Below are positions 1 to 63,385 of a stretch of DNA of 64,000 nt, piece after piece. The position numbers and the translations under genes were made by a program. The notes under the pieces are model-generated. The model made no database searches, was not told the DNA's origin, and was given only the letters and a program-made list of their open reading frames with translations. Numbering within the stretch: position 1 is the first letter of the stretch; every line of letters starts with the position of its first letter. Source of the stretch: Carex sylvatica (Eukaryota; Streptophyta; Magnoliopsida; Poales; Cyperaceae); contig CAXKVR010000256.1 in assembly GCA_964058845.1 (NCBI GenBank), positions 58,371 through 122,370 of the forward strand, written 5' to 3'.

Positions 1-540
1 TCACCTGAGACTTGAAGAATGTCATTTGGAGATACATCTTCATCTTCAATAATTTGTTGTTCTTGACAACTTTCGGGAGTTTCAACTTTGAAAATAATGT
101 ATTGGCCTAGGTTGTTTTTTTTGGTTGTGACCAGGCTGACCATCTACACTAGGTACTAAGTTACCTTCTTTAAAGTATGGTTCATCTTCACGAAATGATG
201 GATACATCTCTATATATATACATTTTTTTTTTATTAAAATCATAACATTTGTATCCCTTCTTTTGAGATGAGTAATCTAAAAAGATCCCTTTAATTGCTC
301 TTTTTTCTAATTTATCTCTTTGATTTTCTTGTACATTTTTAAAACATATACATCCAAAAAATCTTAAATGTTTGAAATTTGATTTTTTGTTGTTCAAAAC
401 TTTTAAGGGAGATTTATTTAAAATATGACTAGTTCTATTAATTAAATATGTAGCTGTGAGAACGGCTCAGACCAAAAAGTTTTAGGTACATTTGTTTGAA
501 GTAATAATGCATAATTGTTGACCTTTCGTATTTTGGCTAC
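1..540 (-). pseudogene. Ty1/copia retrotransposon polyprotein fragment (C-terminal integrase region)
   Basis: The minus strand reads as the end of a copia integrase. Residues seen include SNFKHLRFFGCICFK, then a basic stretch and AIKGIFLDYSSQKKGYKCY, which is the well-known tail after the integrase core in plant copia polyproteins. The frame can be followed upstream to about base 540 (TYLINRTSHILNKSPLKVL) but only across stops, and no reverse transcriptase follows in frame. The element runs off the left edge of the window. This is a decayed relic with no sign of activity. The lineage within copia is not resolved. Confidence 0.8.
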
Positions 541-3320
541 AAAATCGTCATCCAAGCTCCGATTGAGTTGATTCAAGTTGGGTTGGAAACTAGACAATGA
601 GATTTACAACTTTCATGAAGGCTTTGAGTTCAGATTCGGAATGTACAGGTCTCGGTAAGCGATCTAAAGTCAATGTATTATGTGCATCTCTGTGCGGATG
701 GCTTCTTCGATAGCGTGCGGTTGAGCTCATCCATGTGCTAATGAGAATCTTCGAATTCTTGCTTCAATTCCTTGCTTCATTTGCATGCGGTTTGCGTCCA
801 AACTGCACGACAAATATTAGTGTCCAGAATGCTTTGTTTTATCCCTGTTTTAGACTTAAAGTAATAGAAATATGCAATTCTCCAGATTATGATAAAATGA
901 CAAAAGTAATCTGATTCTATAGAAAATGAGTAACTGTAATATGATAAATGATAATATTTTAGGTCAAGTGATATGGAAAATCACTACTTATTTCACTTCT
1001 ATCACACCCCTAAGCTTAAATCTTTGTTCGTTTCAAACAAATAATCTGAGAATTTTGTTCGTCCCCGAATAAAATACGAAAATTTTACTAATGTGATAGA
1101 TTTGATTGTCCACATACAAATCTAAATAATTCATTCTCGGGTCATATACTCATTGGTTCGAACCTTTAAACATTACTTTGTACCGAACTACAAAACTTGT
1201 TAAATTACTTTGAATATTAATTTGCCATAAAATTACTTAAACTCTAATTGTTGTACTTTAACGAAAATCTTTTAGAAATAGAATATTTGCATTCATAACA
1301 TAATTTTAGACTTTAATCGGGATTTTTTAAAAACAAAAATTTAAAACAATTATGATGACAATAACCATAAAGCAAATAAATATCCATTTCACCTTTTCCT
1401 TTACGCGTTGATCTCTTCTTCGACCATATCCTTAGATTTGGAAAAAAGCTAAATGACTAAATGTGTTAGTAAAACATGACTTATGCAAATGCAAATGCAA
1501 ATAAAAATTTAAAATAAAATAAATAGCAAGAATGCAAAAATTCACCATCTCACTTGTTCCGGTTTCACCCTTCTAATGCATAGATACAAACGAGAGGTTA
1601 TGCGTTCCGAATGCACCTAAGAATTTCGTCGGGCCCTAGATCAAGTCGGGTGGAATGACTCATATTTTTATGTCATTTTATTGGGAGATCTTTCGCTCCT
1701 ATTGACAACTATTCTTACGTAGGCGCCCGTACTCATTTTTCTATCTCCATCTTTTCATGCATACTTTTGTATTTTTCTATTTTCTGATTTTTTTTTGTAT
1801 TTTTGTATTTTTTTTTATATTTTTCTTGCATTTTTGAAATAGTAAAGAATTCTAAATAAATATAAAGTACGAGTCATGTTCACTATGAATACACATCTAG
1901 GAATTATCCTTAGACTTTATCAAATTATCGGGGTCAAAACTTAAAGAGAATGTAATTTGAAATATTTTCAACTTTATAGAAATTCTCATGTGTAACAATT
2001 CTAATAAATCCATTTCTGAAATTTTCTTTTCAATCAAAACCATGTTGTTAGCGTTAGTCTTTTTTATTCTAAAATTTCTCATTCAAGTGTCTTGGAGAAT
2101 ATATATTTTAGGTTTGACTTAATGATTTTCATTCAAATCATTTTCTTCCATAATCTAACAAGTATAGACTCCCTAAACCTAAATGTAATTTGATGAAATT
2201 TAAACATGCACGACAAAGACTAGAGAAACACCCTAACAAGTCTAACAAGATACCTTATTCATAGTTAGATAAAATTCTAGTTTTCACAAGCACAAAAAGT
2301 AAACATGCAATGCAAAGATACATGATTCTTACACCTTTTCCCCCAAGCTTAAATCTTTACATCGATAGCGATGTTAATCAATTCAGAAACTTAAAAGGAG
2401 AAGGGTTAGAACCATTGAACTTACAGACTTTAGAAGGGATGAGGTGCGCCATGAAAGGTTGCTCCTTCAATAGCGGTGGTAGTCTGCAAAGAGGCCATAG
2501 CGAGGAAGATTGTATTGCTGTGCTGGGAAGATGAATGAGTGATGAATTTTTAGTTTATAAGGGGAGATGGCATGTGGGGCTTGAAGTAATGGTTTGTTAC
2601 TTCTAGAAATAAGGCTTCATTCTTAGAAGATCTTAAAAATAGAAAGCTTCTAAAATAAACTGTTGTTAGTAATAACATGCCCTACAAATGTATATAGTTG
2701 AGCGTGTGAACTAATAACTTAGAATATTTTCTCCTTAATTTCCTCTTCAATCTGCACAGATACCAGAATCGTGTGTGGTTCAGATGCTAAACCGCATGCT
2801 AATGGATTTACCTTATTTAGAGCCAGTATGCGTTTGTGATTGGTCTGTGTGCGACTGGTTTTACCTTCTTTAGATCCAGCGTACGATTGAGGAGAAATAT
2901 ATGCGAGTTCATGCTTAGTAATTTTTCTTATTATAACAACTAACATAGACATGTTCAGTCACATGCGGTTCTCAGGTGATCTGCAAGGCTGAAGGACATT
3001 GTGTGTTTTTATTAATCATATGGGATTCGCCAAGGCATCATTCGCATGCGAATTGGATCAATCGTGTGCTAGTGGAGACTATTGTTTTGAAGTTGGTAGA
3101 ATACTGATTTGGAGCAGTCTCCTAAACCACAAGGAAGTGCGAGAAAAATTTCAGAGAGCTAGTCTCTGCTTTTATTCTTAGCATAATGATTGTTTGAAAA
3201 TTTTCAGATCAAGAGTGCCTATTAGTTGATGTTCTCTTTGCAGGTTTACGTAATGAAGGCATTTGAACACTCCTCATATTTTATTGATTGAGCATAATAT
3301 TTACAAAGGCTTATTAGTAG
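541..3320. other. intergenic, no recognisable gene; probable decayed retroelement sequence
   Basis: AT-rich sequence with poly-T runs. Short ORFs at 2310-2534 (+) and 2719-2952 (-) have no family I recognise. Phrases built around 'gcatgcggt' recur near 780 and 2790-2960, suggesting old LTR or leader sequence, but no terminal repeats or target duplications were found. Confidence 0.4.
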
Positions 3321-3592
3321 GGGTGAAAACGGATTCGAATTATCCGATCCGTATTAGCTCCAAATCTGCCTGATATCTGTATCTATTTTAAACGGAGAGG
3401 ATAATTCGTAGATTCGGATAATTACTGAGTATTGATAAATCATCCGGATTTGGATAATACTCCTAATACTTAAACGGATTGGATAGCCGTATATATCCAG
3501 ATCCAAAATCCAAAGAGAACTGAATAATGCCTTTTCTCTGACACATTTTCTAACCGGATGGTCCGGACACATTATCTCCCCAATTACCCATG

Positions 3593-3812
3593 AATTTGTA
3601 TCCTCTGCATTAACTCAAAAAGGAATCTTTTGAGTTAATATATTTGAACCGTCTGATTATCTTTAAGATTCATGCAAGTCAGATTCGCACAAATATTAAA
3701 GACCCTCTATGTTATAGGCAGAGGCTAGATGGGCTCTGTTTTTAATCAGACGGTCCATATCCATTAACCGAAAAGATTTTCTTTTGAGTTAATGCAGATG
3801 ATGCGGACTCAT
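3593..3812. mobile_element. small inverted-repeat MITE, family 'TCCTCTGCATTAACTC'
   Basis: Both ends carry the same inverted motif: TCCTCTGCATTAACTCAAAA on the left and its complement, ending TTGAGTTAATGCAGATGATG, on the right. A second copy with the same layout lies at 40484-40700. The interior also matches between the two (a phrase around 'gcacaaatattaaag', then 'cagacggtc'). The element is non-coding, and no clear target duplication was seen. Confidence 0.65.
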
Positions 3813-3877
3813 TCCCCATACTTTCTCCTTGCTTTTTGATCCAGGGTGGTCCCCACACACGTGTCCCTTCAGAGGTG

Positions 3878-4490
3878 TCAATGGGTACGATATGGGTAGG
3901 GTGGAACCATTTTCACACCCATACCCACTAAGAATTGACCTTACCCATACCAATTAAGAATTTACCTTACCCTACTTTACCCATACCCGTTAAGATTAGC
4001 GGGTAACGAAACGGTAGTGGGCGAATAACGAATAATACAAATATAATAATTTTATTAATTTTTTAAATAAACCATCAAAACTTATCATGTCATACATATG
4101 CAATCACAATTACTAATATAAAATTAAAATATAAATATGCAATTAATTCTAAGTAATAGTTTTTTATTAAACAAAAAAAAATTAAAATCACAAATATCTC
4201 TTCTAACAAATTCAATTTCTAAACTAAATAATACATTAAAATAAAAAAGTAAAATATTTAGCATAATATTCTTCTTATGATATAATTTATTTTATATAAT
4301 TACCCGTTATCCAATGGGTACGAAATAACTTTTACCCGTACCCATATCTGTTTATCTAATGAAAACAAATCCTTACCCATACCCATACCCAATAAGTTAA
4401 CGAAAAAAAAATCTTATCCATACCCGTCTTATCGAATACGATATGAGTAGGGTAAACGGGTAAATAGGTGTCATTGACACCCCTATGTCC
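3878..4490 (+). repeat. dispersed non-coding repeat (copy 1), the family that hosts the CACTA insertion at 58.8 kb
   Basis: It begins 'ggtgtcaatgggtacgatat' and ends with a near-inverse phrase around 'gtgtcattgacaccc', giving terminal inverted repeats. The interior is AT-rich with recurring 'taccc' words. The same sequence recurs at 58752-58776 plus 62931-63385 in the same orientation, where a CACTA element splits it. This is probably a non-autonomous hAT-like element, but no 8-bp target duplication was confirmed. Confidence 0.6.
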
Positions 4491-12289: not shown

Positions 12290-14650
12290 TCCATCCTGCT
12301 TATGTTACTAGAATTTCCAGATACTTCTCCTGTTCTAGTGCCAATTTTGCCTCAAACTCTGCCATGATCATTTATCTTGCTTCTGGGTCATAATTTCCAC
12401 TAAACCAAATAGTGGACTTTTGAGGGTTCACCACTAAACCCAAATAGTCCCCAAATAGGTCTAGAATGCCTTTGATTTGTCTTACTTCAGCCACGGTTGC
12501 CTCTCCAAAAATAATTAAGTCGTCTGCATACATCAAGTGTGTTATCTTTGGAGCCGAATGAGCTAGTCTAATGCCTTGTATGTTTGTCTCGTAAGGATTC
12601 ATTAAAGTGTTTAGTTAAGAATTCCATTACGAGAATGAAGAGATATGGTGATAATGGGCAACCTTGCCGAAGCCCCTGGGTCAGTTTTAGGAAGCCATCC
12701 CCTTGCCCATTTACTAGGATTGTGACTTTGCTCATCTACATGCAATTGCAGATAAGGTTGATTAATCGGCTAGGCATTTTAATGGATTTAATGGCACCAA
12801 TAACAAACCTCCAGTTGACAGTGTCAAAGGCTTTCGTAATATCCGCCTTTAAGGCAAAAAAATTCTCCTTGTACCCAAGGTCTTGGAATGAGTGCAGTAC
12901 CTCCTTGATGAGGATTGTGTTGTCGGCTATATTTTACCTTTTAGAAAAGTTGTTTGGCTATTGGAAATAATTTGCATCATGTGTGGCTGGAGCCTGTTTG
13001 CAATTATTTTTATTAGAAGTTGGTACATCATGTTCCCAATGGTGATAGGCCAGTAATCTTTCGGCCTTTGTGCTTCTTCTATCTTAGGAATCAATACTAT
13101 CTGACTTCTTAGCCAATTGTGTGGTGGCCTTCATTCTTGAAAAGTATGAACTATTGCCTTTGTGATCCCCTCTTTGAAGGACGTTTGTAGGAGCCTAGCA
13201 GTTATTCTATCAGGGCCGGGGCTTTGTCGGGCCCCATTTGAAACAAGGCCTCCTTGATTTCAACTTCTGTTGGTGGCCTGGAGAGTACCTCTTGGTCTGC
13301 ACTTGTGATCACAGCCTCCTCTGTCTCATCAGCATGTTCAAAGTATAGGCCAAACTCTTCCTCACTTCTCTGTTGTGGTGGTTGCTTGTACAGTTCTTTA
13401 AAGAATTTAACAAACTCCCCTCTTATCATGGCATCTGTTGTTACTACCAAACCATTTTCTGTTTCAATATGTGTTATCATGTTTCTTCTTCTGCGATTTG
13501 TGGCCATGATGTGAAAAAATATTGTGTTTTGATCTCCTTCCGTGAACTATTGCAGCCTAGACCGCTGTCTCTAATAATCTGACAGGTCATTCTCCGCTTG
13601 GTAATATTCTTCCAATAGGCGACTTCCAACCTCTCTGGACTGTATGATGGGATGTAGTGACTGAAAAGCTAATAATCGGGTTTGAGCCTAATTTAAATGG
13701 GTTTGCAGATTCTCAACTATACGGACCCATTTTGTTATGCATTTTCTTAGTTCAGCTCTAATAGGCCATGATTTGTTTTCTGACTCATTCCACATTGCCT
13801 CACACACTTCTTTAAAACCTTCATGGTTAAAGCACCATTTTTTTATTTTGAATTTGGATTGGTTAAGCGGTTTCCTATGCATTCTTAGAAGTATCGGTGC
13901 ATGATCACTATGCACTCATAGGAAATGGTTGACATAGGCCATCGGGAATTATTGGGTCCATGAAGCTATTGCTACTACTCTATTGAACCTCTCGAAAATC
14001 TCCGTTGTCGAATCTTGGCCGTTAGTCCATGTGTATGACGGTCCTTTGTAACCGAGATCAATCAAACCGGTTTCAAAGAGAAAATTCTTGAAATTCTTGT
14101 TATTTGCATTAAAATTTGGGTTGCTTTCATATTTCTCATGCATTTCCGTTATGGCATTAAAATCACCCATCACACATACCGTTCCTTCTCCTTCCACTAT
14201 CTGCTTAATTGCTTCCAATATGACTCTATTGCCGGTATAAGCTGCATCTCCATATACACACAATAGGGTCCATACCGGCTTATAAAGTTGCTGCACTCTT
14301 ACATGAATTATGTTCCTTGTCTTGTAAATCACTTGCATATTCACACCTTGTCTTGTAAACCATTTCTGTTCCACCCCCTTTACTTTTTCTTTTGTGTTGT
14401 CGAGTTGTGATAGGACTAGGAGACTGTTTAGCTGTTCTGTGTAAGAGAGTTGTGGTGTAATAGTGATTTGTCCAATAGTAATAATAACGGATACCTGATG
14501 AATAATGGAAAATTCTCCAACTGATATTGATACTTTTTCCTCTGCTCCGGCAAATCTCCAGTTTCTGTTTTTATCCCCTGGTTCACTCTTCTTTTCACTT
14601 TGCAATAGAGGCCCTTTTAATTTTTGGTTGTTCCTGGTGTAACTAGGTTT
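12290..14650 (-). pseudogene. L1-type LINE: endonuclease and reverse transcriptase, decayed
   Basis: Reading on the minus strand from 14605, the AP-endonuclease region shows VCVMGDFNAITEMHEKYE and then YKGPSYTWTNGQ, followed at 13900 by the HSDHAPILL catalytic motif. Next come the pre-RT spacer (13202-13507), an RT segment around 13080 (IVLIPKIEEAQRPKDYWPI) and the RT active-site box with LMYADDLIIFGEA at about 12520, then VNPQKSTIWFSGN. Plant LINE ORF2 is normally over 1200 aa in one frame. Here it is spread over several frames with stops and frameshifts, and it lacks the C-terminal RNase H region. This is a dead, 3'-incomplete copy. Confidence 0.9.
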
Positions 14651-15619: not shown

Positions 15620-17639
15620 TCTCAAATGGGTATTAAATGTTGTCTTTCTGGGAATTGTTGTTGGGAGAGAAAGAAGAGAAATGTGGGGGCATTTACAGCT
15701 TACTGTGGATTTGGGTAGTTTCTAGGTTTCCTGGTGCTCAATCACCATGGAAGACTCCTTCAATCGCCATTTCAGAAATTTTGGAAATTTTGGAAATTGT
15801 CCCCCTCAATAAAAGTGAACTCAATGCTCATGTTTTGTGTGACACTATGACAGAGACAGAGAGAATATTCAAACAGAGAGGTACGCTGTGATGTGCTCTG
15901 GTGACTGGTATAGTATGGCATGGGAGAAGACAAGACCTTGCCATGCAAAGTGCCTCATTTCCTCTGGTCACCTTAAATGCTCCTCAAATGGATATTAAAT
16001 GTTGTGTTTCTGGAAATTACTGTTGGGAGAGAAAAAAGAGAAATGTGGTTTCAAATTTACTGCTTACATTTGGGTAGTCTCTAGGTTTCCTGGTGCTTAA
16101 TCTCTATGGAAGACTCCTTCAATCGCCATTTGAGAATTTTGGAAAATTTACCAAATTGTTCCCTCAATAAAAGTGTACTCAATGCTCAATGCTCATGTTT
16201 TGTGCGACACTATGACAGAGACAGAGAGAATATTCAAACAGGGAGGTACGCTCTGCTGTGCTCTGGTGACTAGTATAGTATGGCATGAGGGAAGACAAGA
16301 CCTTGCCATGCAAAGTGCCTCCTCTCCTCTAGTCACCTTAAATACTCCTCAAATGGGTATTAAATGCTGTGTTTCTGGAAATTGTTGTCGGGAGAGAAAG
16401 AAGAGAAATGTGGGGGCCTTTACTGCTTACTATGGATTTGGATAGTCTATAGGTTTTCTAGTGCTTAATCGTCATGGATGACTCATTCAATCACCATTTG
16501 AGAATTTTGGAAAAATTTACAAATTGTCCCCTTAATAAAAGTGTACTCAATGCTCAATGCTCAATGCTCAATGCTCATGTTTTGTGTGAGACTATAACAG
16601 AGATAGAGAGAATATTCAAACAGAGAGATACACTCTATTGTGCTCTGGTGACTGGTATAGTATGGAATGGAGGAAGACAAGACCTTGCCATGCAAAGTGC
16701 CTCATCTCCTCTGGTCACATTAAATGCTCCTCAAATGAGTTTTAAATGTTGTGTTTCTGGGAATTGCAGTTGGGAGAGAAAGAAGAGAAATATGGAGCAT
16801 TTACTGCTTATTGTGGATTTGGGTAGTCTCTAGGTTTCCAGGTGCTCAATCGCCATGGATGACTCCTTCAATCGCCATTTGAGAAATTTGAAAAAATTTC
16901 CAAATTGTCCCCTTAATAAAAGTGTATTCAATGCTCATATTTTGTGTGACACTATGACAGAGACAGAGAGAATATTCCAACAGGGAGGTACGCTTTGCTG
17001 TGCTCTGGTGACTGGTATAGTATGGCATGGGGAAAGACAAAACATTGCCATGCAAAGTGCCTCTTCTCCTCTGGTCACCTTAAATGCTCCTCAAATGGGT
17101 ATTAAATGTTGTGTTTCTGAGAATTGTTGTTGGGAGAGAAAGAAGAGAAATGTGGGGGCATTTACTGCTTACTGTGGATATGGGTAGTCTCTAGGTTTTC
17201 TGGTGCTCAATCGTCATGGAAGACTCCTTCAATCGCCATTTGAGAAATTTGGAAAAGTTTCCAAATTGTCCCCTCAATAAAAGTGTACTCAATGCTCATG
17301 TTTTGTATGACACTATGACAGAGACAGATAGAATATTCAAACAGGGAGGTACGCTCTGCTGTGCTCTGGTGACTGGTATAGTATGGCATGGGGAAATACA
17401 AGACCTTGCCATGCAAAGTGCCTCCTCTTCTCTGGTCACCTTAAATGCTCCTCATATGGGTATTAAATATTGTGTTTCTGAGAATTGATGTTAGGAGAGA
17501 AAGAAGAGAAATGCGGAGGCATTTACTGCTTACATTTGAGTAGTCTCTAGGTTTTCTGGTGCTCAATCACCATGAAAGACTCCTTCAATCTCCATTTGAG
17601 AAATTTGAGAAATTTTCCAAATTGTCCCCTCAATAAAAG
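15620..17639 (+). repeat. tandem array of about 360-bp units (5-6 copies)
   Basis: The marker 'atgg(a/t)(a/t)gactcc..caatc' occurs at 15747, 16106, 16474, 16855, 17216 and 17572, spaced 359, 368, 381, 361 and 356 bp. Each unit contains the same order of phrases: GGGAGAGAAAGAAGAGAAATG, TAGTCTCTAGGTTTTC, CCTCAATAAAAGTG, a (CAATGCT)n tract, GACAGAGACAGAGAGAATATTC and CCTTGCCATGCAAAGTGCCT. The 381-bp spacing reflects expansion of the AATGCTC tract to four copies near 16550. Most units keep a plus-strand ORF of 70-119 codons, but no known domain is visible. It could be a satellite or an amplified leader of a lost element. Confidence 0.9.
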
Positions 17640-26045: not shown

Positions 26046-27557
26046 CTAATACTTGTCTATCCAAGGAACACTAGGTCGTAGGGCCTCGCGTGTTTTTGAA
26101 TGTTTGAGATAGTCCAGCCAATTAACTTTTACTTGAATCTCACCATACGGACTGTTGAGTTTCCCCACAGAGTCACCATAATACTCGGGTGGAAAAAGCA
26201 ATGCGCCACGTGCAAGAGGTTGGTTTGTGTCAGAATTCCACAGATCAACCTTAACAACTAGGGACGATCCGTAACGACAACAAAACAAAGATTTAGACAA
26301 GGGGATGGACTCCATAGACTTGATAGTGAAGCCGTCACCGCTTTTCTTACTGAAAATGAAGCTTCTCACATACGACATATCGTTGATGTAAACAATAATA
26401 TCACCATGAATTTTGAACCCTATTGTTTGTTCAGTTGACTTGATTAGTTTCACATCTATCTCACCAAGCCAAGCAGCCCTCATCCCATTATAGATCACCT
26501 GCACGGAACCATTCTGTCCTTCAACCTTGGTACACAACCACTCGTTGATGGGATTGTAAAGATAATTCCAATACACAACATCTTCACATAGTTTGTCGTC
26601 ATCTATGTTGAGATCCACTAGGATCACGACGGGATCATAACCTAAAGGGGCTACATCAGGACCGTTTAACGGCAAGGAACCCTAAAGAAATAAATGTAGA
26701 GAGAGAGAGAGAGAGAGAGAGTGAGAAAAGGGGTATATATGTAGAGAGAGTGAGAGAAGTGTTATATATATCTGTATGTAACCTTTTTGTGAATCATGAT
26801 TGCACTTTCTTTGTCGTGATCAAAGATGTATGTGCCGTAGGTAGTGCAGTCAAAGAGGATCTTGCCATGGATCTTTCCGTGCTCCTTCCCACATAGGTCC
26901 ACTTTCACGTCAAAAATCTCGACTAATGGATCTGGATACACGAGTCTCTCCCTGCCTTCGCCATTTGTCTCCACACGAATTGGTTTCCAAATGCCATCTT
27001 CTATAGGAATTGGAGGTTTCCATGATGGTTGTGTATCTCCTCCCTCAGAGTCAGAATAATAATCCTACAGGATATGAAAAAGGTTGAAAATTCAGCAAAT
27101 TAAAAATGAATTCATTAATTAATGCAAACTCTTAAGCAAACTAGTCAGTCAATCTAAAGGGAAGTATGACAAATTAAAATCTGTCATGCTTTAGGTTGTT
27201 TTGTGAAACAGATAATGCCAAATAAGAAGCTATTTCGAGGGGGATTGAAGGGCTTAAGAACTGAATCGAACTTTGATATTAATTTACCAAAACAATTAAG
27301 AGTCTGTTTGTGGTATATCAAGATTAATTTGAGGCCATCTAATTAATAATCAATCCCAATCAGCTTAATTAGCAATATATATATATATATATATATATGT
27401 AGAGAAAGAAAGCGACCTCAGGGTGTTTCTGAATTTCGAAGGATAACTCACAAATGACGTCTGCAGATGGGCCGCTTTCTAACTCGGAATACCTGCTTTC
27501 TTCTTCTTTATCTCCTCCTCCTCCTTCGGGAAGATGCGATCCTGTCTCTGTCTTCAT
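26046..27557 (-). CDS. DUF6598-like protein, three exons, about 352 aa
   Basis: Exon 1 is 27557-27417 (47 codons, MKTETGSHLPEGGGG.., acidic and low-complexity), exon 2 27064-26783 (94 codons) and exon 3 26681-26046 (211 codons plus stop). All introns are GT..AG and phase 0, and the joined frame has no stop. Exon 2 carries DPLVEIFDVKVDLCG and GKIHGKILFDCTTYGTYIFD. Exon 3 carries LPLNGPDVAPLGYDPVVILVDL, then AAWLGEIDVKLIKST, SMESIPLSKSLFCCRYGSSL and LARGALLFPP. This order of beta-rich motifs matches the plant DUF6598 domain, whose function is unknown and which also occurs fused to other domains in grasses. No signal peptide or membrane segment is seen. Intron 1 holds a (TA)n tract and intron 2 a (GA)n tract. 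The gene looks intact; the family call is from memory of the motif order. Confidence 0.75.
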
Positions 27558-29345: not shown

Positions 29346-29714
29346 AGACACCACTAGTGTGGTGCAAAGAACCTTCAATTAGAGTGTTGTATTAGGGTTG
29401 CAACTACTGTCTCTTGCCATATGGGGACAATACTAGTTTGCTGCAAAGACTTTCAATTGGAGTGTTGTATTAGGGTTACAACTATCCTCTTCTGTTGTCA
29501 TCTAGAGACACTACTAGAGTGCTGCAAAGACCTTCAATTGGAGTGTTGTATTAGAATTGCAACCACCCTCTTCTTTTGCCATCTGGGGACACTAATATTG
29601 TGCTGTGAAAACTTTCAATTCGAGTGTTGTGTTAGGGTAACAACTACCCTCCTCTGTTGACATTTAGAGACACCACTAGAGTACTGCAAATACCTTAAAT
29701 TAGAGTATTGTATT
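29346..29714 (+). repeat. 78-bp tandem repeat, array 1 (about 4-5 copies)
   Basis: Units follow the consensus order GGTTGCAACTACC, CTTCTCTTGCCAT, GGAGACACTACTAG, TGCTGCAAAGACC, TTCAATTGGAGTGTTGTATTA. As 78 is 26 codons, one frame stays open (29421-29660) giving repeats like LECCKDLQLECCIRVATTLF. The array is cut by the solo LTR at 29715. Confidence 0.9.
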
Positions 29715-31689
29715 TGTTAGTTTGTAATAATCTAGAAGTCAATAATACGATAAATTATCATATAAAGCTTTGTTCATGAATTGAGTGATTAAATAAACTG
29801 TCATTTTGTTGTCTTGAGTATTATTGTATTTATGAATCATTTCGAGTCAATGACTAGAATTGTGAAACTTCATAATATATATGATATATATTCTTAAAAG
29901 TTTCTAACCAAGGTAATTAGCAGGAATACTAATTATCGCTACAAAGTTAGTGTGTGGATTAAAAGATGATCAAGTTTCACAGACCACTGACAAGATATGT
30001 CATTTTAATCACATAGATATATATTCTAGGAACATGATATTTGACAGACCCCGAATGAAACATTAAATGAAATTGTATTTGTGTCATTAATGTTTTCATT
30101 CAGTGTTAAGTTCTAAAGTATTAGGTATTCATCTTTCCTACTTAGAGATGTGTATGTGTGATTCTTACCTAACGCTGCCTATAAAAAGCAGCTATAACGG
30201 TAGCTCTTCGGTATACATAGCTTAGCTAATGTAGTGATGGTTTACCAAAAATACTATTGTCCCTCGTATCTCTATTCGAGTTATAGTATCACTGGGCCCC
30301 TTGGTAGAGTAAGATTATCTGCTAGCGGTATAATTACAAGAGTAATTATATTTGATAATCTGCTCAAGATCAAGAAAATATTAAGTTTGCAAGGATGACA
30401 CACACCTACCTTGAAACTGATCTGATAGCTATGAGACAGAAGAACTGACACAAGTAAATACTTTACTGATCGTGATATTATACAGTACATCATCATCTGT
30501 GTAATTGGATAGTCATAGTGCATACGTCAGATGCCTCCTATGATTATAGAACTTAAAACAGTTTTAATTCTATTTACCAACATAACACTAATCATATTGG
30601 GTCACACCATATAGGAGCTAATCGGAGAATCTTATTGATTATAATTAATATTAAGATGGTTATAATTAATTATACGTAATATAATTAAATTATAAATGTC
30701 ATATAAGATGACAAATAGAAACAATGGTTAATTTATAGGTGTACACGGTACGTTGTATAAAAGTTACCGAAACAATAACCGAGAGAAGTATAATTGTACA
30801 TAACAATTATATATATAAATATATATTTGATTTGAATTTTAATTATTAATTATGAATTTGAATTATGGGTTTAAAGTCCATTAACAATTAAAGTCCAAAT
30901 ACAAAAGCCCAAAAGTAATCAAATGGAAGTGACAAAATCGAATTTGATTACCTCCACTCCATGGCATGCATTGTGAATAGGCCAAACTTGAGGGGTATTT
31001 TGGTCATTGACAAACCTCCTCAAATGCCTATAAATAGAGGGCTGAGAGTGAGAGAGAAAATTACTAATTCATGTGTTATTGAATTGTCTGATCAGTTTGT
31101 TAATCTATTTTCTCTCTTTCTCTGTTTATGGTTGTTTAAAGTTCACGAGATCGGTGAATTGTATTCTTTCAGTACCCCCACGTGTTTCAGGCTTATATGC
31201 TTGTGATAACCTTTGACATCTAGCGGCTCGAGACTAATATTATTTTGTCTTTTCTCGATGAATAGTGTTTTTGCAGAATCTCGTGATTTTTGGTATTTCT
31301 GGCAAAAGATATGAACCACTCTCTGGTTAGTCCTGGTGGATAACTGATAGAGGTATCAAACGTCTGATATTCTGAGACGAATCATTTTTTATAGTCACTC
31401 TTCTCGCTCGGCTGCATTCCAATTAGAATTTGGAGACAAGGTATAAATATGTTATATTAATCTATATAATTTGTAAATAGATTCAAGTTTTAGAATTAAA
31501 TTAAGGAGTATATCTGTAAAAGGATTAAATTGTGTTTTGATGCCAAAGAAATACGGAAGGTGGACCGCCTTATAATGTTTCCTGACATACCTCGTTTAAT
31601 CCTTAACTTAAGTTAGAAGTAAAAATTTTGTTTTACAGTCTTTTCGCATCTTAAGCCTAATCCAGTTTTGGTTACCCCGAAACCCAACA
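29715..31689 (+). mobile_element. solo LTR of 1975 bp inserted in the 78-bp array
   Basis: Begins TGTTAGTTTG and ends CCCAACA (TG..CA). The flanks GTATT and TTATT agree at 4 of 5 bases. The 78-bp array resumes immediately after it. A TATA box (CCTATAAATAGAG) at about 31030, followed by a plausible transcript start, sets the plus orientation. No retroelement internal domains adjoin, so it is a solo LTR. Confidence 0.75.
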
Positions 31690-32629
31690 TTATTAGGGTT
31701 GCAACTACCCTATTCTCTTGCCATATGGAGACACTACTAGAGTGCGACAAAGACCATCAATTGGAGTGTTGTATTGGAGTTGGAATTACCATATTCTCTT
31801 TCCATATGGAAACACTACTAGAGTACTACAAAGACGTTCAATTGGAGTATGGTATTAGAGTTCCAACTACTCTATTCTCATGTCATTTGGAGACACTACT
31901 ACTATGCTGCAAATACCTTCAATTGGAGTGTTATATTAGGATTGCAACTAACATCTTCCCTTTCCATTTGAACACATTACTAGAGTGTTGCAAAGACCTT
32001 GAATTGGAGTGTTGTATTGGGGTTGGAACTATCATATTCTCTTGCCATCTGCAGACATTACTTGAGTGCTGAAAAGACCTACAATTGGAGTGTTGTATTA
32101 GGGCTGGAACTATCTTTTTCCCATTCTATTTGGAAACACTACTAGAATGTTGCAAAGACCTTCCATTGGAGTGTTGTATTAGGGTTGCAATTACCATTTC
32201 TCTTGCCATATGAAGACACTAATAGTGTGCTACAAAGACCTTCAATTGGAGTATTGTATTAGGATTGCAAATATCTTATTCTCTTGCCATATATAGTCAC
32301 TTATATTGTGCTACAAAGATCTTCAATTGGAGTGATGTAATAGGGTTGAAACTACCATCTTCTCTTGCATATGAAAATACTACTAGTGTGCTGCAAAGAC
32401 CCTTAATTGTGGTGTTGTATTATGGTTGCAACCACCATCTTCTCGTACCATCTGGGGACACTATTAGCTTGCTGCAAAGGCTTTCAATTGGACTGTTATA
32501 TTAGGGTTACAACTACCATCTTTTGTTGCCATCTGGAGACACTATTAAAGTGTTGCAAATACCTTTAATTATACTGTTGTATTAGGTTTGCAACTACCAT
32601 CTTCTATTTCCATATAAAGACACTATTAT
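31690..32629 (+). repeat. 78-bp tandem repeat, array 2 (about 12 copies)
   Basis: Same unit as array 1, with diverged copies and occasional small deletions. Frames remain open over 31668-32072 and 32265-32504. It is interrupted on the right by the LTR at 32630. Confidence 0.9.
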
Positions 32630-36665: not shown

Positions 36666-36985
36666 ATTGTATTTAAATATTATAAAAATTGTCTAATATG
36701 TGAATATTGAAGAAAATTTGTGCATAACATATAATCATAAGATGATAAAGAGAGCTGAGAATTTTTCTTCGAATTTTAGAAATCTTGTAGTGAATGTCAT
36801 ATGATTAATTATTTGAGACAATTTTAGAAAATATAGACTTTCATTTTTATGCATCTCATTCATATGACGTGTGTGTGATATATATTTGACTTGACATCTC
36901 ATGAAAGTGATTGTATACATACAAATATATCTAAAAGAAAGTTCATTCGAGTTGATATCTCGCACTCTCAACAGTCTTTTATCTA

Positions 36986-37300
36986 TTAGGAGTGTATTAG
37001 GGTTACCACTACTCTCTTTTGTTGTCATCTGGAGACAATATTATAGTGCTGCAAATACCTTCAATTTGAGTGTTGTATTAGATTGTAATTACCCTCTTCT
37101 CTTGTCATATAGAGAAACTACTAGTGTCCAAGAAAGGCTTTTAATTGGAGTGTTGTATTATGCTTGCAACTACCTTATTCTCTTGTTATATGGAGACACT
37201 TGTAATATGTTGCAAAGACCTTCAACTACTCTCTTCTATTGCCATTTGGAGACACTACTAGAGTGCTGAAAATACCTTCGATTAGAGTGTTGTATTAGGT
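36986..37300 (+). repeat. 78-bp tandem repeat, array 3 (about 4 copies)
   Basis: Same unit as the arrays at 29.3 and 31.7 kb, with deletions in the second and last copies. It directly abuts an LTR fragment on the right. Confidence 0.85.
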
Positions 37301-57179: not shown

Positions 57180-58751
57180 TGATACAATTTCGATCTCAAC
57201 TCTCAACTCTGCTAGTGACAGATTTTGAATTGATTTAGAAAAATTAAAAATAATTTATCATGCTAAGTAGCAAAGTAAAAAGAAAGAAAGAAGATAAGAA
57301 ACATTCCATATAATATCAAAGTTTAAAGAGAAATATGACATATCATTTCTTTTTATATACATCCATTACATAATAAATAACTTAGAAAAATTAAAAGTTC
57401 AACTTAGAAACTATCAACACATAATAAGTAATTTTTTAAAACTCTAACATAATTAAAGCAATATAAAAAATATAAATAATCAAATCTAAAAAATAATAAT
57501 ATAATTATATTTTACAAAAAATATAACATAATTTAATTATGCAATTAATCATCATAAAAATTAATAAATTAGTGGAATCCCTTTTTGAACCTTGTGCCTA
57601 GCCATTCAGGGAGATTGAAAAATAATTAACCTGTAATGAGTCCGAGTTCGAATTTGAATTCAAGTTCGAGTTTGAGTCCAAACCGAAATTTTAATTTTCG
57701 TCGCAGTCACAAAGTTCCGTACTGCCTCTATTAATAATTGGATAAAAATATTAACAATGCTATTTTAACCTAGTATAGTGCACAAATTATCTATGTTTTT
57801 ATTTGACTTCATTCTCTGAAAGCTGTGCAAGGTCAAAACTATACCGTCAATATATTTACCTCATGGTGCGCCTTCTCCAGTTCCACTGCAGTCGCCTTTT
57901 GTACTTTGCTGACCCACCACCACTCAGCATTGCACTTGGAATCCGTATCACCCTAGGTTCCTGAGGGGCAAGTCATAAATCCGGACCGTTCTTTCAACGT
58001 GGCACAAATCTTAAAGCAGACTCCCACAGTCTCAGTAGGCTCCGAATTGGATTTGGGTTGATTGGGATTAATCTGGGCCGTACGTTTTTTTTTTTCTTCC
58101 AATTTTACCTCAGGTACCTGGGGGTCACGAACTCTTGCATTTGCTCGGGTCCATATGCTGATTTAACTAGTGTTGTAAAATGTGGTCGCATGACTAGTAT
58201 ATATGGTCGCATATACTTATGTAGTAGTTTTCTGCATACAAAATTTCATGTAGTCAAATTTATACATTTTTGAATATATGAATATATATACGGTCCATGC
58301 GAACTTAACAAAAATCTAAAAATTATTTTGCGTGGAGGAGAATAGAATCTATAACCTTTATAATATGGTAAATAGCACAAACTACTAGATTAAACAAGTC
58401 TTTAAATATAAATTTATTTTATTTTATCATATTTCTTTAACAAAACATAGTAAAACTACATATGCACTTCTGCATACAAATCCACATATAAAGCCGCATG
58501 CTGCATATGAGGTATGCAGTGGTATTCTGCATGCATGAACAAAACCACATTTTATAACACTGGTTTTAACGCATCTCGCATACAATATCAGTATCACAAC
58601 TCTTACTGTTGAGATCTAGAGAAGAGAAGGGGAGCGTGATCTAATAATCTACATCTCAACCCATCTACCCGCCTTTGCCCGTGTGTCATTTCCTTTCTCC
58701 GGTACTATGCTTATTGCCAAATATGTCTATCGTATTTGTATTGTTATTTCT
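57180..58751. other. probable LTR relic and intergenic sequence
   Basis: The part adjoining the primer-binding site (57180 to about 57780) is likely the LTR of the minus-oriented element, but its far end could not be fixed. The remainder is AT-rich. 'catatatg/gcatac' words between 58180 and 58540 suggest another small repeat. Confidence 0.4.
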
Positions 58752-59149
58752 AGGGATGTCAATGGGTACGATACATCACTAGTGGAGAAACTAGAATTAG
58801 AATTGGTCTATCTGGATTGGTTAATTTCAAAAATTCAATTCTAAAAACTATCAGAATCGGTTATTATAAAGAACCGATCCTAATATATGCACATTTAAAT
58901 CAGTTTTTTATAATAATCGATCATAATAATATTAGAATTGGTTCTTATAAAGAACTGATCTTAATATATGAACAATTAGAATCAGTTATTAATAATAACC
59001 GATCTTGATACTATTTGAATCAGTTATTATAAACAACTGATTCAAATATGCATACATTAGAATGATTCTTTAAAAATATCCGATCATAATACTATCAGAT
59101 CGGTTTTTTAAGTTAAGTGATTCTAATGGTCAGATTGGTGCTAGGTTTT

Positions 59150-59311
59150 TATTTTTCATTTCGCGCCTCTCTTTCGCCAAAATTTAACTCACTCGTCTCT
59201 CCCTCGCGCTCCGTGTCTCTCTCTCTCTCTCTCTCAGACCCAAAGCCCCACCTCCCCGCCTCCCCCAGCCTCTTCTCTCTGCCTTTCCCTCTTCGCTGTC
59301 TTTAAACGCTC
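59150..59311 (+). promoter_or_regulatory. captured HCF106 5' flank/leader
   Basis: A (CT)n-rich, much less AT-rich stretch (59160-59300), unlike the surrounding AT-rich sequence, precedes the first HCF106 ATG. It looks like the 5' UTR and possibly the core promoter taken along with the gene. No clear TATA box was fixed. Confidence 0.45.
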
Positions 59312-60569
59312 GTGCCACCCCAACCCTCATCCCGTCTGTACGGGCAGCCGAGCACCTCAAATCCTCCATCTTCTTCCTATTCCCCTTTTTATTCCTGTAA
59401 ACTATTCCTCTACCCCACGCTACACTCGAACAAAAGTCTCGTTTTCTCCTGCTCAGCTCTATCTCTGCGAAGTGGGCCCCACTTTCGTTCTGGCTTCTCC
59501 TCTCACCACTACCCGTTCTCTACAGGTGCTCTCCTAGCTCGACTTCTGTTTATTTATTATTTCTATTTATTTATTTTTGGAAAATCAACGGTCCCTTATT
59601 CACAACCTGTTGTAATAACACCCAAGGTTGATATATCTCTTTTTAGGCCCTTTCAATCAATAGGTAGAAGTAGAAAACTAGTAATCTTTGTTGGTTTGTC
59701 GCTTATTTTGCTAAATTAAATGGCATTTTAATTCTGTAGCTAGCAAGAATCTACTGATTTAATACTGAGAATAAACATTTCTGATTGCCCCCTTAAAGAT
59801 TTGGTAATTAAATTCGTTTTTATTTCAAATTTCAGAGAATAAAGGGCAAAACCGCAGAAATGAGGTGATGGCCTCTCTCTTTGGAGTCGGTGCACCAGAG
59901 GTTTTGGTCATAGGTGTGGTTGCTTTGCTTGTTTTTGGTCCAAAAGGTCTAGCTGAGGTACTGTTGAATAAACCAGTATCATTGTTTTTTTATAGTAATC
60001 AGAGAGTATCAGTACTATTGATAATATCTTTTACATGTTCCTTTCTACCTTAATTTGATTTTGGATTTTAAGTGGTTAATGAAAAACACAGGTGGCACGG
60101 AATTTAGGTAAAACCTTAAGAGCTTTCCAACCCACGATCAGGGAACTTCAGGTGAGCGTGATTTTTGTATTTTTGTTTTCTATTTACAAAATGGCCAAAA
60201 ATTAGTCATGAAAACACCGGTAGGCTTGTAGAACTAAGCCTACATTGCACGATTTTGTAACCCGGCAGATCTGTACCGGTTGTATGAGTCTCAAGTTCAT
60301 TTCTTTTTGCAGTTTGTTCTAGACTTGTAGAACATTAAAAATTGATGAACTAAAGTACCTTTATGGCTTGTAACGGAGTTTACTATACCAGGCATTTTCA
60401 TACCCCTGCCCAACCAATCTGTACTGGTAACTAGTTAATTTGTATGAATTAATTACATGCTTGTTATTATGGATAGGAAGTGTCAAAAGAATTTAAGAGC
60501 ACCTTACGATGGCAAAAAGATCGAGATCATTTATTTAGTCTTCTAAATCTTTTCCTAAATTACTATTGA
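59312..60569 (+). CDS. HCF106: truncated HCF106 (thylakoid TatB-like), captured by CACTA, about 162 aa
   Basis: Exons: 59312-59525 (71 codons plus 1 nt), 59836-59957, 60092-60151 and 60477-60569 (stop), all GT..AG and in frame. Exon 1 is Ser-rich (MPPQPSSRLYGQPSTSNPPS..), as expected for a chloroplast transit peptide. Exon 2 gives RRNEVMASLFGVGAPEVLVI, then GVVALLVFGPKGLAE: the TatB membrane helix and hinge. Exon 3 gives VARNLGKTLRAFQPTIRELQ, the amphipathic helix. Exon 4 starts EVSKEFKSTL and then switches to 20 unrelated residues (RWQKDRDHL..) before TGA. Full HCF106 is about 240-260 aa, so the rest of the helix and the acidic tail are lost. HCF106 with cpTatC forms the receptor for twin-arginine proteins on the thylakoid. 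The breakpoint is near 60506. Expression is unknown. Confidence 0.85.
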
Positions 60570-60971
60570 AACTGTTAATGTTTAATTGAATTTACATAAT
60601 TAGTCTTTCATGTCACTCATAATTAGTTTAATTGTTCAAATTGTTGGGCACAACTTTTAACAATTTTAGTATTATTAGTTACCTTTTCACTAGAATATTT
60701 ACTGTTTTCAATATCCTTATAAGCATGATATTATGAAACCAAATTAAATATAAAGAAAACTAGGACTTGTCTCAAATTTATGCATGCTCCAGAAACAAAC
60801 AGAAAAACCTCTTTTAATCACAGAAGAATGAATTTCATTGCTTTGCCAGTATCAACAAAATTACTGGAACTACTCACTTTCTTTTATTGTTATTGTCGGT
60901 TATTGCTTTATTATTACGACTGAAATTTTCCTTCTTTTTCCCATTATTTTTTATTTATTTATTTTACTTAG

Positions 60972-61954
60972 GTACAAAACCCTGCAACCGGTGATGTTAT
61001 TGCAAGTGTTCCATGCATGGGGGCCAAAGAAACTGCCGATGCCATTTCTTCAGCATATACTACCTATACTTGTATGTTATTTCCATTCTTAAACTCTTTT
61101 TTTCCTTGTACAAATGGATCTAAAATTCTAACTAAACAATGAAAAATGACCTCATTAAAAGAACGTGTACCAGCATGCGTGGAGTTCGCTCCAGTTTTAC
61201 AAACAGTAAAAAAAAAGACAAAAACAAACCAACAAACATGCTAAAGTCATTGTTTTGTATTTTTTTTTTTTGTTATATTTAAGCTTGAAGCAAAACTGAC
61301 GGCAGCTGAAAGAAGCAAATCTCTGAGAAACTGGTATTACATTGTCTGGTTTTTTTTAAGAAAAAAGGACTTTGGGGTGGTTTTATTCATCATGTCCTCC
61401 CCTTCATAACCTTTGTAATTATCAATTATATATCTATGAATAGAACTGTGGTAATATAGTTAGTATGAGTATATTTATTAGTGATTTACGATGTACTGTA
61501 ACTCCTAAATTGGGTATATGCAATTAGAAATTATTTTTCTGAAAGAGTTGATGCTTTGACTGTTTCAATGATTGAACACAAGGATGAGCTAGCACAACCA
61601 ATCACACTTGAACAAGGAAAACCTCTAACGGAGGCTCTTGGTGAGGTACAAATTTAATTTTATTAACTCTATGTAATAAGCTTTGCTATCTTAACTCTCT
61701 ACTGCACAATTGCATGGCATTTGAAGGTTTTTCAGGGACATGGAAGTTCTCTGTGTTATCTTTTCCTAATTTGGAAAGTTTTGTATGCCTATGAATGCGC
61801 TTAGTTAACATATGGTTATTAAATTTTTTACTGTCTCCATCTGTAGGTAAACTATGGGGCTAGCTTCATTGAATTTTTTGCTGAGGCAAAACGCATATAT
61901 GGTGACATTATCCCAGCTCCATTATCTGACCGTCGGCTTCTTGTGCTAAAACAG
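60972..61954 (+). pseudogene. succinic-semialdehyde dehydrogenase (ALDH5F) internal exons, captured by CACTA
   Basis: Exons: 60972-61071 (VQNPATGDVIASVPCMGAKE, then TADAISSAY), 61284-61333 (KLTAAERSKSLRNW), one ending at 61645 (MIEHKDELAQPITLEQGKPL, then TEALGE) and 61847-61954 ([20 protein letters not shown], then [16 protein letters not shown]). This is the N-terminal NAD(P)-binding side of plant mitochondrial SSADH, which oxidises succinic semialdehyde in the GABA shunt. The catalytic Cys/Glu half is absent. Joining the first two exons at the visible splice sites makes TGA the first full codon and shifts the frame, and the third exon lacks a clean acceptor, so the copy is non-functional. 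One Glu of the usual AEEAKR is missing. Orientation matches the HCF106 piece. Confidence 0.85.
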
Positions 61955-62073
61955 GTTGGCAAACTGTTTCTAATCTTCTTTTCTCTTTCCAATTTTTTTT
62001 AGAAAATGTCTGTAATGATTAAAGAAATTAGTGTTAAATACATTTTTTTCATTTTCTTGTTGGGACTAAAGCA

Positions 62074-62292
62074 TTTTTTTAAGCCCATTTTTAGAGTCCA
62101 CTTTAAGCAGGCATGATATGTTAGATGCGCTACTCATAACATGCCAGTAGTTCATGCAGACCATTTATTTTTTCTTTCAACTGAGATTACTCGCTTGTCA
62201 GAAAGTTTTTATTACAAGTCTTGCTTTGCTGGTATTTTCTTGTTAGGACTAAAGTATTTTTTTAAGCCCATTTCTAAGTCCACTTTAATTTT
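62074..62292 (+). repeat. local duplication inside the CACTA element
   Basis: 'ggactaaagcatttttttaa' with 'gcccatttttagagtccac' (about 62083) recurs as 'ggactaaagtatttttttaa' with 'gcccatttctaagtccac' (about 62246), about 160 bp apart. Non-coding, in what was SSADH intron or filler. Confidence 0.75.
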
Positions 62293-63385
62293 TCACTGCT
62301 AGATGTGGTACTTGTAAAGATCAGTCGGTACTTGAAACCAGTTGGTGCTTGTTGAAACCGTATCACTGGTACATAAACAAGGACAGTGAATCTGATCAAT
62401 TGCTAGTATGGTGTGAGGAATCCCTCGTTCTAAGATTTCTGATATTTGTTTTTTCTTGTTATAATTTGTAAATCTTTACTTTTTAAATATTTTTTATGGA
62501 TGATTATTTATTGCCTAATATAAATTCTGTTGCTAAGCAATTTTTTATGATTGTGCTATGAAATATTGGTGGTTTCTTTGATAATAAGTATGTGTAATAT
62601 CTTTTTATCCTGATATGTAATATTAATTTTTTTGATTTAAATTTCTTGTCATAATATGTAATGCATTGTATATGGATTTACAAAATGTTGGTTCTAAAAA
62701 AAAAAAAAAAAAAAGAGAATCAAGATCGGTTGTTTTAAACAACTGATCTTAATAATACTAATCTGGATCGATTTTTACAAATAACTGATCCTAATTCAAA
62801 CTTTTAGGATTGGTTGTTTAACCGATTCAGATTAGTTTAGTATTAGTATCGCCTGGATCAAGATCGGTTAAATTCCAATCCTAATGTGCGTAAATAATCG
62901 ATCTTAATTTCAGTTTTTTCACTAGTGCATGTAGGGTGGAATCATTTTCATATCCATATCCTACCCATACTCGTTAATAACTTGCCTTATCCTATCTTAT
63001 CCATACTCGTTAAAATTAGTGGGTAATGAAACGATAGCGAGTGAATAACGAATAATGCAAATATAATAGTTTTATTATTTTTACAAATAAACTATCAAAA
63101 CTTATCATATCATACACATGCAATCACAATTATTAATATAAAATTAAAACAAAAATATGTAATCAGTTCCAACTAATAATTTTTTATAAAGCAAAAATAA
63201 ATCAAAATCACAAATATTTTTTTCTGATAAATTAAATTTGTTAACTAAATAACAAAATATTATTCTTAATATAAAGTACGTATATTTTCTCATGATATAA
63301 TTTATTTTATATAATTACCCATTACCCAACGGGTACAAAATAGTTTTTATTTGTATCCATACCTGTTTATCTAACGAAAATAATC

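What the first reader, a model, noticed from the sequence alone, without database searches (positions are those of the whole stretch)
58777..62927. Pack-CACTA transposon that captured two unrelated organellar-protein genes
A complete 4151-bp CACTA unit (matched termini, 3-bp CAT duplication, subterminal repeats on both sides) contains 5' exons of HCF106 (thylakoid TatB) and internal exons of succinic-semialdehyde dehydrogenase (mitochondrial), in the same orientation with introns kept. Termini, duplication and exon homologies are read from the sequence. That CACTA elements can capture genes is established. The chimeric combination may be undescribed.
Basis: partly seen in the sequence, partly recalled or inferred. 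Interest (0 to 1): 0.88.

Follow-up and report, generated by a model that had tools for sequence, protein, structure and literature searches.

The report
Jumping gene carrying two gene fragments
A 4.15-kb plant CACTA jumping gene carries, introns included, broken pieces of two unrelated host genes (a chloroplast protein-transport gene and a mitochondrial enzyme gene); it is a real and tidy example of a gene-shuffling process already described in several plants.

Summary
Window 58777-62927 is a complete 4151-bp CACTA element with matched CACTAGTG termini, a 3-bp CAT duplication and repeat-rich arms. It sits inside another dispersed repeat: of 45 matches to the joined flanks, 29 cross the empty junction (six aligned). 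Of 20 fetched loci, 12 hold sibling copies with the same termini and matching 3-bp flanks, at 10 distinct sites. Relatives with the same 5' terminus and an En/Spm-type transposase frame exist in the same genome.

The cargo (59237-62283), which no sibling shares, holds HCF106 (TatB) exons up to a broken exon, then four internal exons of succinic semialdehyde dehydrogenase, same strand, introns kept. The SSADH part is a pseudogene (in-frame stop, frame change, lost codon). Nothing in 59237-59525, where a transit-peptide exon would lie, reads ATG. Neither parent gene was found in the 64 Mb held; a 79-bp SSADH relic was. Donor loci are thus untested.

This is a Pack-CACTA. Multi-gene capture by CACTA elements is in print (Tgm-Express1; Gisby and Catoni 2022). 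Only this pairing was not found in the papers searched. New member of a known kind; low interest.

The parts
58777..62927 (+). complete non-autonomous CACTA element (Pack-CACTA), 4151 bp
   Evidence: matched termini and CAT duplication; arms shared with siblings; empty paralogous sites
58774..58776 (.). left copy of the 3-bp target-site duplication, CAT
   Evidence: a single 3-bp unit lies at this place in six paralogous copies of the flank
62928..62930 (.). right copy of the 3-bp target-site duplication, CAT
58777..58792 (+). 5' terminal inverted repeat CACTAGTGGAGAAACT
   Evidence: 67 genome matches of CACTAGTGRARAAACT against 0 in the control
62912..62927 (-). 3' terminal inverted repeat
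58847..59105 (.). left subterminal array, about 81-bp unit, 3.2 copies, with GATCGGTT-like motifs in both orientations
62719..62916 (.). right subterminal repeats (same motif family)
58777..59236 (.). left arm shared with siblings
   Evidence: the zero-coverage stretch starts at element position 461
62284..62927 (.). right arm: 62502-62927 shared with five or more siblings, 62284-62483 with L049 only, 62484-62501 with L049 and L068
59237..62283 (+). captured cargo; matches none of the 20 loci compared; elsewhere in the held genome only two short matches of 76-79 bp were seen (C610 to 59276-59354, C166 to 61595-61672)
59306..59525 (+). possible HCF106 exon 1 (open serine-rich frame; no ATG anywhere in 59237-59525); assignment uncertain
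   Evidence: splices in frame to the next exon; no protein match; 59276-59354 recurs at C610
59836..59957 (+). HCF106 exon with TatB membrane segment (...MASLFGVGAPEVLVIGVVALLVFGPKGLAE); in-frame ATG at 59868
60092..60151 (+). HCF106 exon VARNLGKTLRAFQPTIRELQ
60477..60506 (+). truncated HCF106 exon EVSKEFKSTL; similarity ends here
   Evidence: compare P0206
60972..61071 (+). SSADH exon VQNPATGDVIASVPCMGAKETADAISSAYTTYT
61284..61333 (+). SSADH exon ...KLTAAERSKSLRNW, with an in-frame stop where the relatives have W, and a frame change beside it
61546..61645 (+). SSADH exon ...MIEHKDELAQPITLEQGKPLTEALGE; 5' end irregular
61847..61954 (+). SSADH exon [36 protein letters not shown], one codon lost
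58750..58776 (+). left part of the older dispersed repeat in which the CACTA is nested
62931..63149 (+). right part of that repeat (matched at least this far)
3876..4129 (+). a copy of the same repeat in this window without the CACTA (paralogous empty site)
   Evidence: (C256:62246-62499)

Best explanation
A non-autonomous CACTA (En/Spm-type) element whose middle is made of pieces of two host genes: 5' exons of HCF106 (thylakoid TatB) and internal exons of mitochondrial SSADH, both with introns and on one strand. It moves by cut and paste when a transposase made elsewhere in the genome binds its terminal and subterminal repeats, and it leaves 3-bp duplications. Shown: the termini, the duplication, sibling copies, transposase-bearing relatives with the same 5' end, nesting with empty paralogous sites, and a cargo confined to the interior. 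Inferred: that transposase from those relatives acts on this copy, and that capture followed the published route (neighbouring insertions read as one element after loss of the inner ends). The cargo looks non-functional as protein. It could at most be transcribed, giving chimeric RNA or small RNAs.
For: Termini and duplication. 12 of 20 fetched loci hold a pair of CACTAGTG ends (up to 1 mismatch) with identical 3-bp flanks, 1534-3517 bp; three of the 12 share their flanks, so these are 10 distinct sites. 67 against 0 matches of the 16-mer. Four transposase matches have the same 16-mer 2.2-3.5 kb upstream on the same strand; two were read and hold 878- and 834-aa frames with Transpos_assoc, Transposase_21 and DUF4218. 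29 of 45 rows of matches to the joined flanks cross the junction, 24 as one long match and 5 as short pieces; six places aligned. Coverage by the 20 compared loci is zero in element positions 461-3507. HCF106 and SSADH identity.
Against: 8 of the 20 fetched loci gave no matched pair under the same criterion. The donor genes were not found in the held 64 Mb, so capture from two separate loci is inferred from the identity of the genes. Two short cargo stretches have other matches: 59276-59354 at C610 and 61595-61672 at C166, the latter a lone SSADH relic with no further SSADH exon found in 7.5 kb. The 3' ends of the two transposase-bearing relatives were not reached in the 9.9 and 9.4 kb read, so full autonomous elements are not delimited. 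No remnant of inner termini, which would show fusion of two neighbours, is left in the cargo.
Confidence: 0.94

Rival explanations
1. A variant on the origin of the cargo: the fragments already lay side by side in the genome (made by another element or a rearrangement), and the CACTA element took the ready-made block up in one step.
For: Nothing in the cargo shows two separate capture events; the HCF106/SSADH border lies somewhere in 60507-60971 with no element sequence between them. SSADH relics occur outside this element (C166).
Against: No copy of such a block elsewhere in the held genome, though that genome is probably incomplete.
Confidence: 0.3
2. The element is a live chimeric gene: transcription from the HCF106 5' region and splicing of HCF106 exons to SSADH exons gives a new protein under selection.
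For: The HCF106 exon ending at 60151 and the SSADH exon starting at 60972 join in frame (both phase 0). Splicing of captured CACTA exons into chimeric transcripts is published for soybean.
Against: No ATG in 59237-59525; a stop right after the codon that spans into the next SSADH exon, then a frame change; an irregular start of the third SSADH exon. No RNA data.
Confidence: 0.04
3. Chance: two degenerate gene relics happen to lie between unrelated CACTAGTG words.
For: CACTAGTG is short and palindromic.
Against: Subterminal repeats on both sides shared with many siblings, the duplication, and a junction that closes without a gap in paralogous empty sites.
Confidence: 0.01

Closest known systems
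Tgm-Express1 of soybean (CACTA; Zabala and Vodkin 2007, PMC1947982; abstract, Background and Discussion read)
   Same: CACTA element with intron-bearing fragments of several unrelated host genes (five there), flanked by element ends; potential for chimeric splicing
   Different: different genes and host; 5.7 kb; sits in an intron of a flower-colour gene and has proven transcripts, whereas the present one sits in a repeat and has no RNA evidence here
[quoted passage not shown] Catoni et al. 2019, not held, known only through citations)
   Same: non-autonomous CACTA ends around coding DNA, in some cases from more than one locus; cargo internal and less repeated than the ends
   Different: other hosts and genes; here only one copy of this cargo is seen
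Tpn1 family of morning glory (Kawasaki and Nitasaka 2004; seen only as a title in a reference list)
   Same: by its title, En/Spm-related elements that capture host genes
   Different: not compared in sequence

Membership tests
CACTA (En/Spm) superfamily | terminal inverted repeats beginning CACTA | tested here: met
   CACTAGTG at both ends
CACTA (En/Spm) superfamily | 3-bp target-site duplication | tested here: met
   CAT/CAT; empty paralogous sites
CACTA (En/Spm) superfamily | subterminal direct and inverted repeats | tested here: met
CACTA (En/Spm) superfamily | tnp2-type transposase in autonomous relatives with the same ends | tested here: inconclusive
   two relatives with nearly the same 5' terminus and long open PF02992 frames; their 3' ends were not reached
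Pack-CACTA | no transposase of its own | tested here: met
   none of the PF02992 matches listed for the genome lies on C256, the window's contig
Pack-CACTA | interior contains host coding DNA absent from siblings | tested here: met
Pack-CACTA | captured DNA traceable to host parent loci | tested here: inconclusive
   neither parent gene was found in the held 64 Mb; only a 79-bp SSADH relic at C166
Pack-CACTA | origin by fusion of neighbouring insertions | tested here: inconclusive
   no inner end remnants; the left and right arms have different closest siblings, but the arms are repeat-rich

The most novel reading that the evidence does not exclude
The element gives a spliced RNA joining HCF106 exons to SSADH exons (or small RNAs from them) that interferes with the parental thylakoid-transport or GABA-shunt genes, so that one mobile element touches two organelles at once.
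Probability: 0.04. Interest if true: 0.55.

Novelty: new member of a known kind. Interest (0 to 1): 0.25.

Why it matters
It adds one well-delimited case of exon capture by a CACTA element, in a plant that looks like a monocot, with siblings, transposase-bearing relatives and paralogous empty sites in the same assembly. It does not change what is known about such elements. With the complete genome the same family could be used to test how CACTA elements acquire gene pieces.

Tried and rejected
Looked for parent genes by DNA, Pfam family and protein. The only other TatA_B_E match, C492:12441-12557, reads FFGLGVPELVVIAGVAALVFGPKKLPEIGRNIGKTVKGFQ, which I take for the TatA/Tha4 type (recalled), not HCF106. 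The protein search found no SSADH outside the window, but the DNA search listed C166:23376-23454, 84% to 61595-61672. I read 7.5 kb around it: it is a degraded piece of the third SSADH cargo exon, and tblastn with three plant SSADHs found no other SSADH exon there, so I reject it as the parent. Since HCF106 is a basic photosynthesis gene (established knowledge), its absence suggests that the 64 Mb held are only part of the genome.

A 79-bp stretch, 59276-59354, matches C610 at 80%. That locus has no CACTAGTG word (up to 1 mismatch). I could not tell what it is; it weakens the reading of 59306-59525 as HCF106 exon 1 and leaves room for a third source.

Looked for captured genes in the longest sibling-like locus. 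Six frames of L050:1240-5700 gave no Pfam match at E up to 0.1. Long frames of L049 and L052 were listed but not searched.

Compared left and right arms with 15 siblings to test for a hybrid origin. The left arm scores best against L053 and L052, the right arm against L050 and L051. Given the repeats in the arms this is not decisive, and I draw no conclusion.

Paper searches for the pairing: HCF106 + transposon + succinic semialdehyde dehydrogenase, 0 papers; HCF106 + CACTA, 6 papers, of which one was opened at its single mention, a reference to maize mutagenesis, the other five seen only as listings; semialdehyde dehydrogenase + CACTA transposon, 1 paper, with unrelated mentions.
Full report
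What is there. Window 58777-62927 begins CACTAGTGGAGAAACT and ends AGTTTTTTCACTAGTG, with CAT immediately outside both ends. Both ends carry arrays of a GATCGGTT-type motif: 8 in the first 370 bp and 8 in the last 221 bp, both strands and up to 1 mismatch, against 2 in the 3047-bp middle. Tandem Repeats Finder reports an 81-bp unit, 3.2 copies, at 58847-59105. The 16-mer CACTAGTGRARAAACT is found 67 times in the held genome (64.0 Mb, 950 contigs) and its reversed control 0 times.

It is one of a family. A DNA search with the whole element returned 255 matches (40 of 315 first-look candidates scored; the printed list is cut); apart from the self match, those I saw lie in query 1-459 or 3508-4151. 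I fetched 20 stretches, 19 chosen for arm matches and one (L064) for a nearby transposase. In 12 of 20 a script found two CACTAGTG words (up to 1 mismatch) with identical 3-bp flanks, 1534 to 3517 bp apart; in the other 8 (L049, L050, L055, L056, L058, L061, L064, L068) it did not. L062, L063 and L065 have the same flanking sequence, so they are copies of one insertion, and the 12 stand for 10 distinct sites. With BLAST hits of 60 bp or more at E up to 1e-5, element positions 461-3507 match none of the 20 loci compared; 1-460 and 3726-4151 match several, 3508-3707 only L049, and 3708-3725 two. So the cargo is 59237-62283. Compared with the 1534-bp sibling L051, it stands where that element has about 410 bp of its own (L051 element positions 610-1023).

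Transposase source. The genome has 114 matches to the CACTA transposase family PF02992, none of those listed on the window's contig. Four (C140, C939, C689, C156) have the family's 16-mer terminus 2.2-3.5 kb upstream on the same strand. Two were read: L069 and L070 start with CACTAGTGGAAAAACTG and similar subterminal repeats, followed by open frames of 878 and 834 aa with Transpos_assoc, Transposase_21 and DUF4218. Their 3' ends were not reached, so I call them transposase-bearing relatives, not proven autonomous elements.

The insertion is real. The flanks belong to a dispersed repeat. A query of the two flanks joined, with one CAT kept, gave 45 rows (40 of 103 first-look candidates scored). 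29 of 45 cross the junction, 24 as one long match and 5 as short pieces; the window's own row starts at the junction and covers the right flank. Five of these places and one in this window (3876-4129) were aligned: the sequence continues without a gap through the point where the 4151 bp plus one CAT stand in our copy, for example ACGATACAGGTAGGGTGG in C820 against ACGATACATGTAGGGTGG; small gaps lie elsewhere in the alignment. These are paralogous, not orthologous, empty sites.

What the cargo is. HCF106: exons 59836-59957 and 60092-60151 and a truncated one at 60477-60506 read MASLFGVGAPEVLVIGVVALLVFGPKGLAE / VARNLGKTLRAFQPTIRELQ / EVSKEFKSTL. Together they match Pfam TatA_B_E at E 4e-22 and plant and algal HCF106-like proteins. 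Upstream, 59306-59525 is an open, serine-rich frame that splices in frame to the first of these. It may be the transit-peptide exon, but no protein match supports that, and 59276-59354 also matches C610, which has no CACTAGTG word. There is no ATG in 59237-59525, so translation of the HCF106 part could start with ATG only at 59868, without a transit peptide. SSADH: four exons between 60972 and 61954. tblastn with the Asparagus SSADH P0001 matches each of them separately, at 72, 60, 81 and 84% identity. Joined as they stand they give a stop right after the codon that spans into the second exon, where the relatives have SW, and a frame change just after. The third exon has an irregular start, and the fourth lacks one E of FFAEEAKR. 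The Pfam and PDB matches for SSADH used a stitched query. All exons are on the + strand; the introns read GT...AG.

Parents. The HCF106 half has no other copy in the held genome apart from the C610 stretch; the only other TatA_B_E match looks like TatA/Tha4. A protein search found no other SSADH, but the DNA search shows a 79-bp relic of the third SSADH exon at C166, 84% alike; 7.5 kb around it hold no other recognisable SSADH exon. The held genome is therefore probably incomplete, and I could not test whether the two fragments came from two loci.

Host. SSADH matches to Asparagus, maize and Curcuma lead the list (short proteins only, by the tool's length rule). The best-scoring transposase matches are unnamed metagenome proteins and then Asteraceae, but the highest identities are from Carex rostrata (64-68% over 36-82% of the query). 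The window has a DUF6598 gene. I infer a monocot, possibly Poales; this is weak.

How it works. A cut-and-paste passenger: transposase from relatives recognises the ends. The capture route in print is that two neighbouring insertions are read as one element and carry off the DNA between them (PMC8903248, section read). The internal cargo fits that route, but no inner ends remain to prove it. The HCF106 exon ending at 60151 and the SSADH exon starting at 60972 are both in phase 0, so a chimeric splice would be in frame for 34 residues before the stop. There is no RNA evidence.

Novelty. Tgm-Express1 of soybean carries pieces of five unrelated genes with introns and gives chimeric transcripts (PMC1947982; abstract, Background and Discussion). 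[quoted passage not shown] The present element is a further case. Only the pair HCF106 + SSADH was not found in my searches.

Noticed in passing
58750-58776 and 62931-63149; also window 3876-4129: The CACTA is nested in an older dispersed repeat starting TAGGGATGTCAATGGGTA; 45 rows of matches, one more copy in this window without the insertion. Its class was not determined.
   Followed up: partly
59276-59354; L011:1501-1576: A 79-bp stretch at the start of the cargo matches C610 at 80%, in a locus without a CACTAGTG word; its nature is unknown and it may point to a third captured source.
   Followed up: partly
L076:3377-3455 (C166:23376-23454): Lone degraded relic of an SSADH exon, 84% to window 61595-61672, without other SSADH exons in the 7.5 kb read.
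   Followed up: yes
L062, L063, L065: Three sibling copies with the same flanking sequence on C623 (two) and C879 (one): the surrounding DNA has itself been duplicated.
   Followed up: partly
15621-17639: Tandem array of a 361-bp unit, 5.5 copies.
   Followed up: no
29346-29714 and 31691-32625: Tandem arrays of an 81-bp unit; a frame at 31668-32072 reads as a repeated CHMETLLEC-type peptide, and similar words recur in a frame at 36901-37269.
   Followed up: no
26046-26675 (-): DUF6598 gene or fragment (Pfam PF20241, E 2e-13).
   Followed up: no
13949-14605 (-): Weak match, below the family's cut-off, to an endonuclease-reverse transcriptase family (PF14529); possibly a LINE remnant.
   Followed up: no
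L050:1240-5700: The interior of the longest sibling-like locus has several long frames without any Pfam match; its content is unexplained.
   Followed up: partly
62051-62093 and 62234-62276: A 43-bp direct repeat, 93% alike, start-to-start spacing 183 bp, in the 3' part of the cargo.
   Followed up: no
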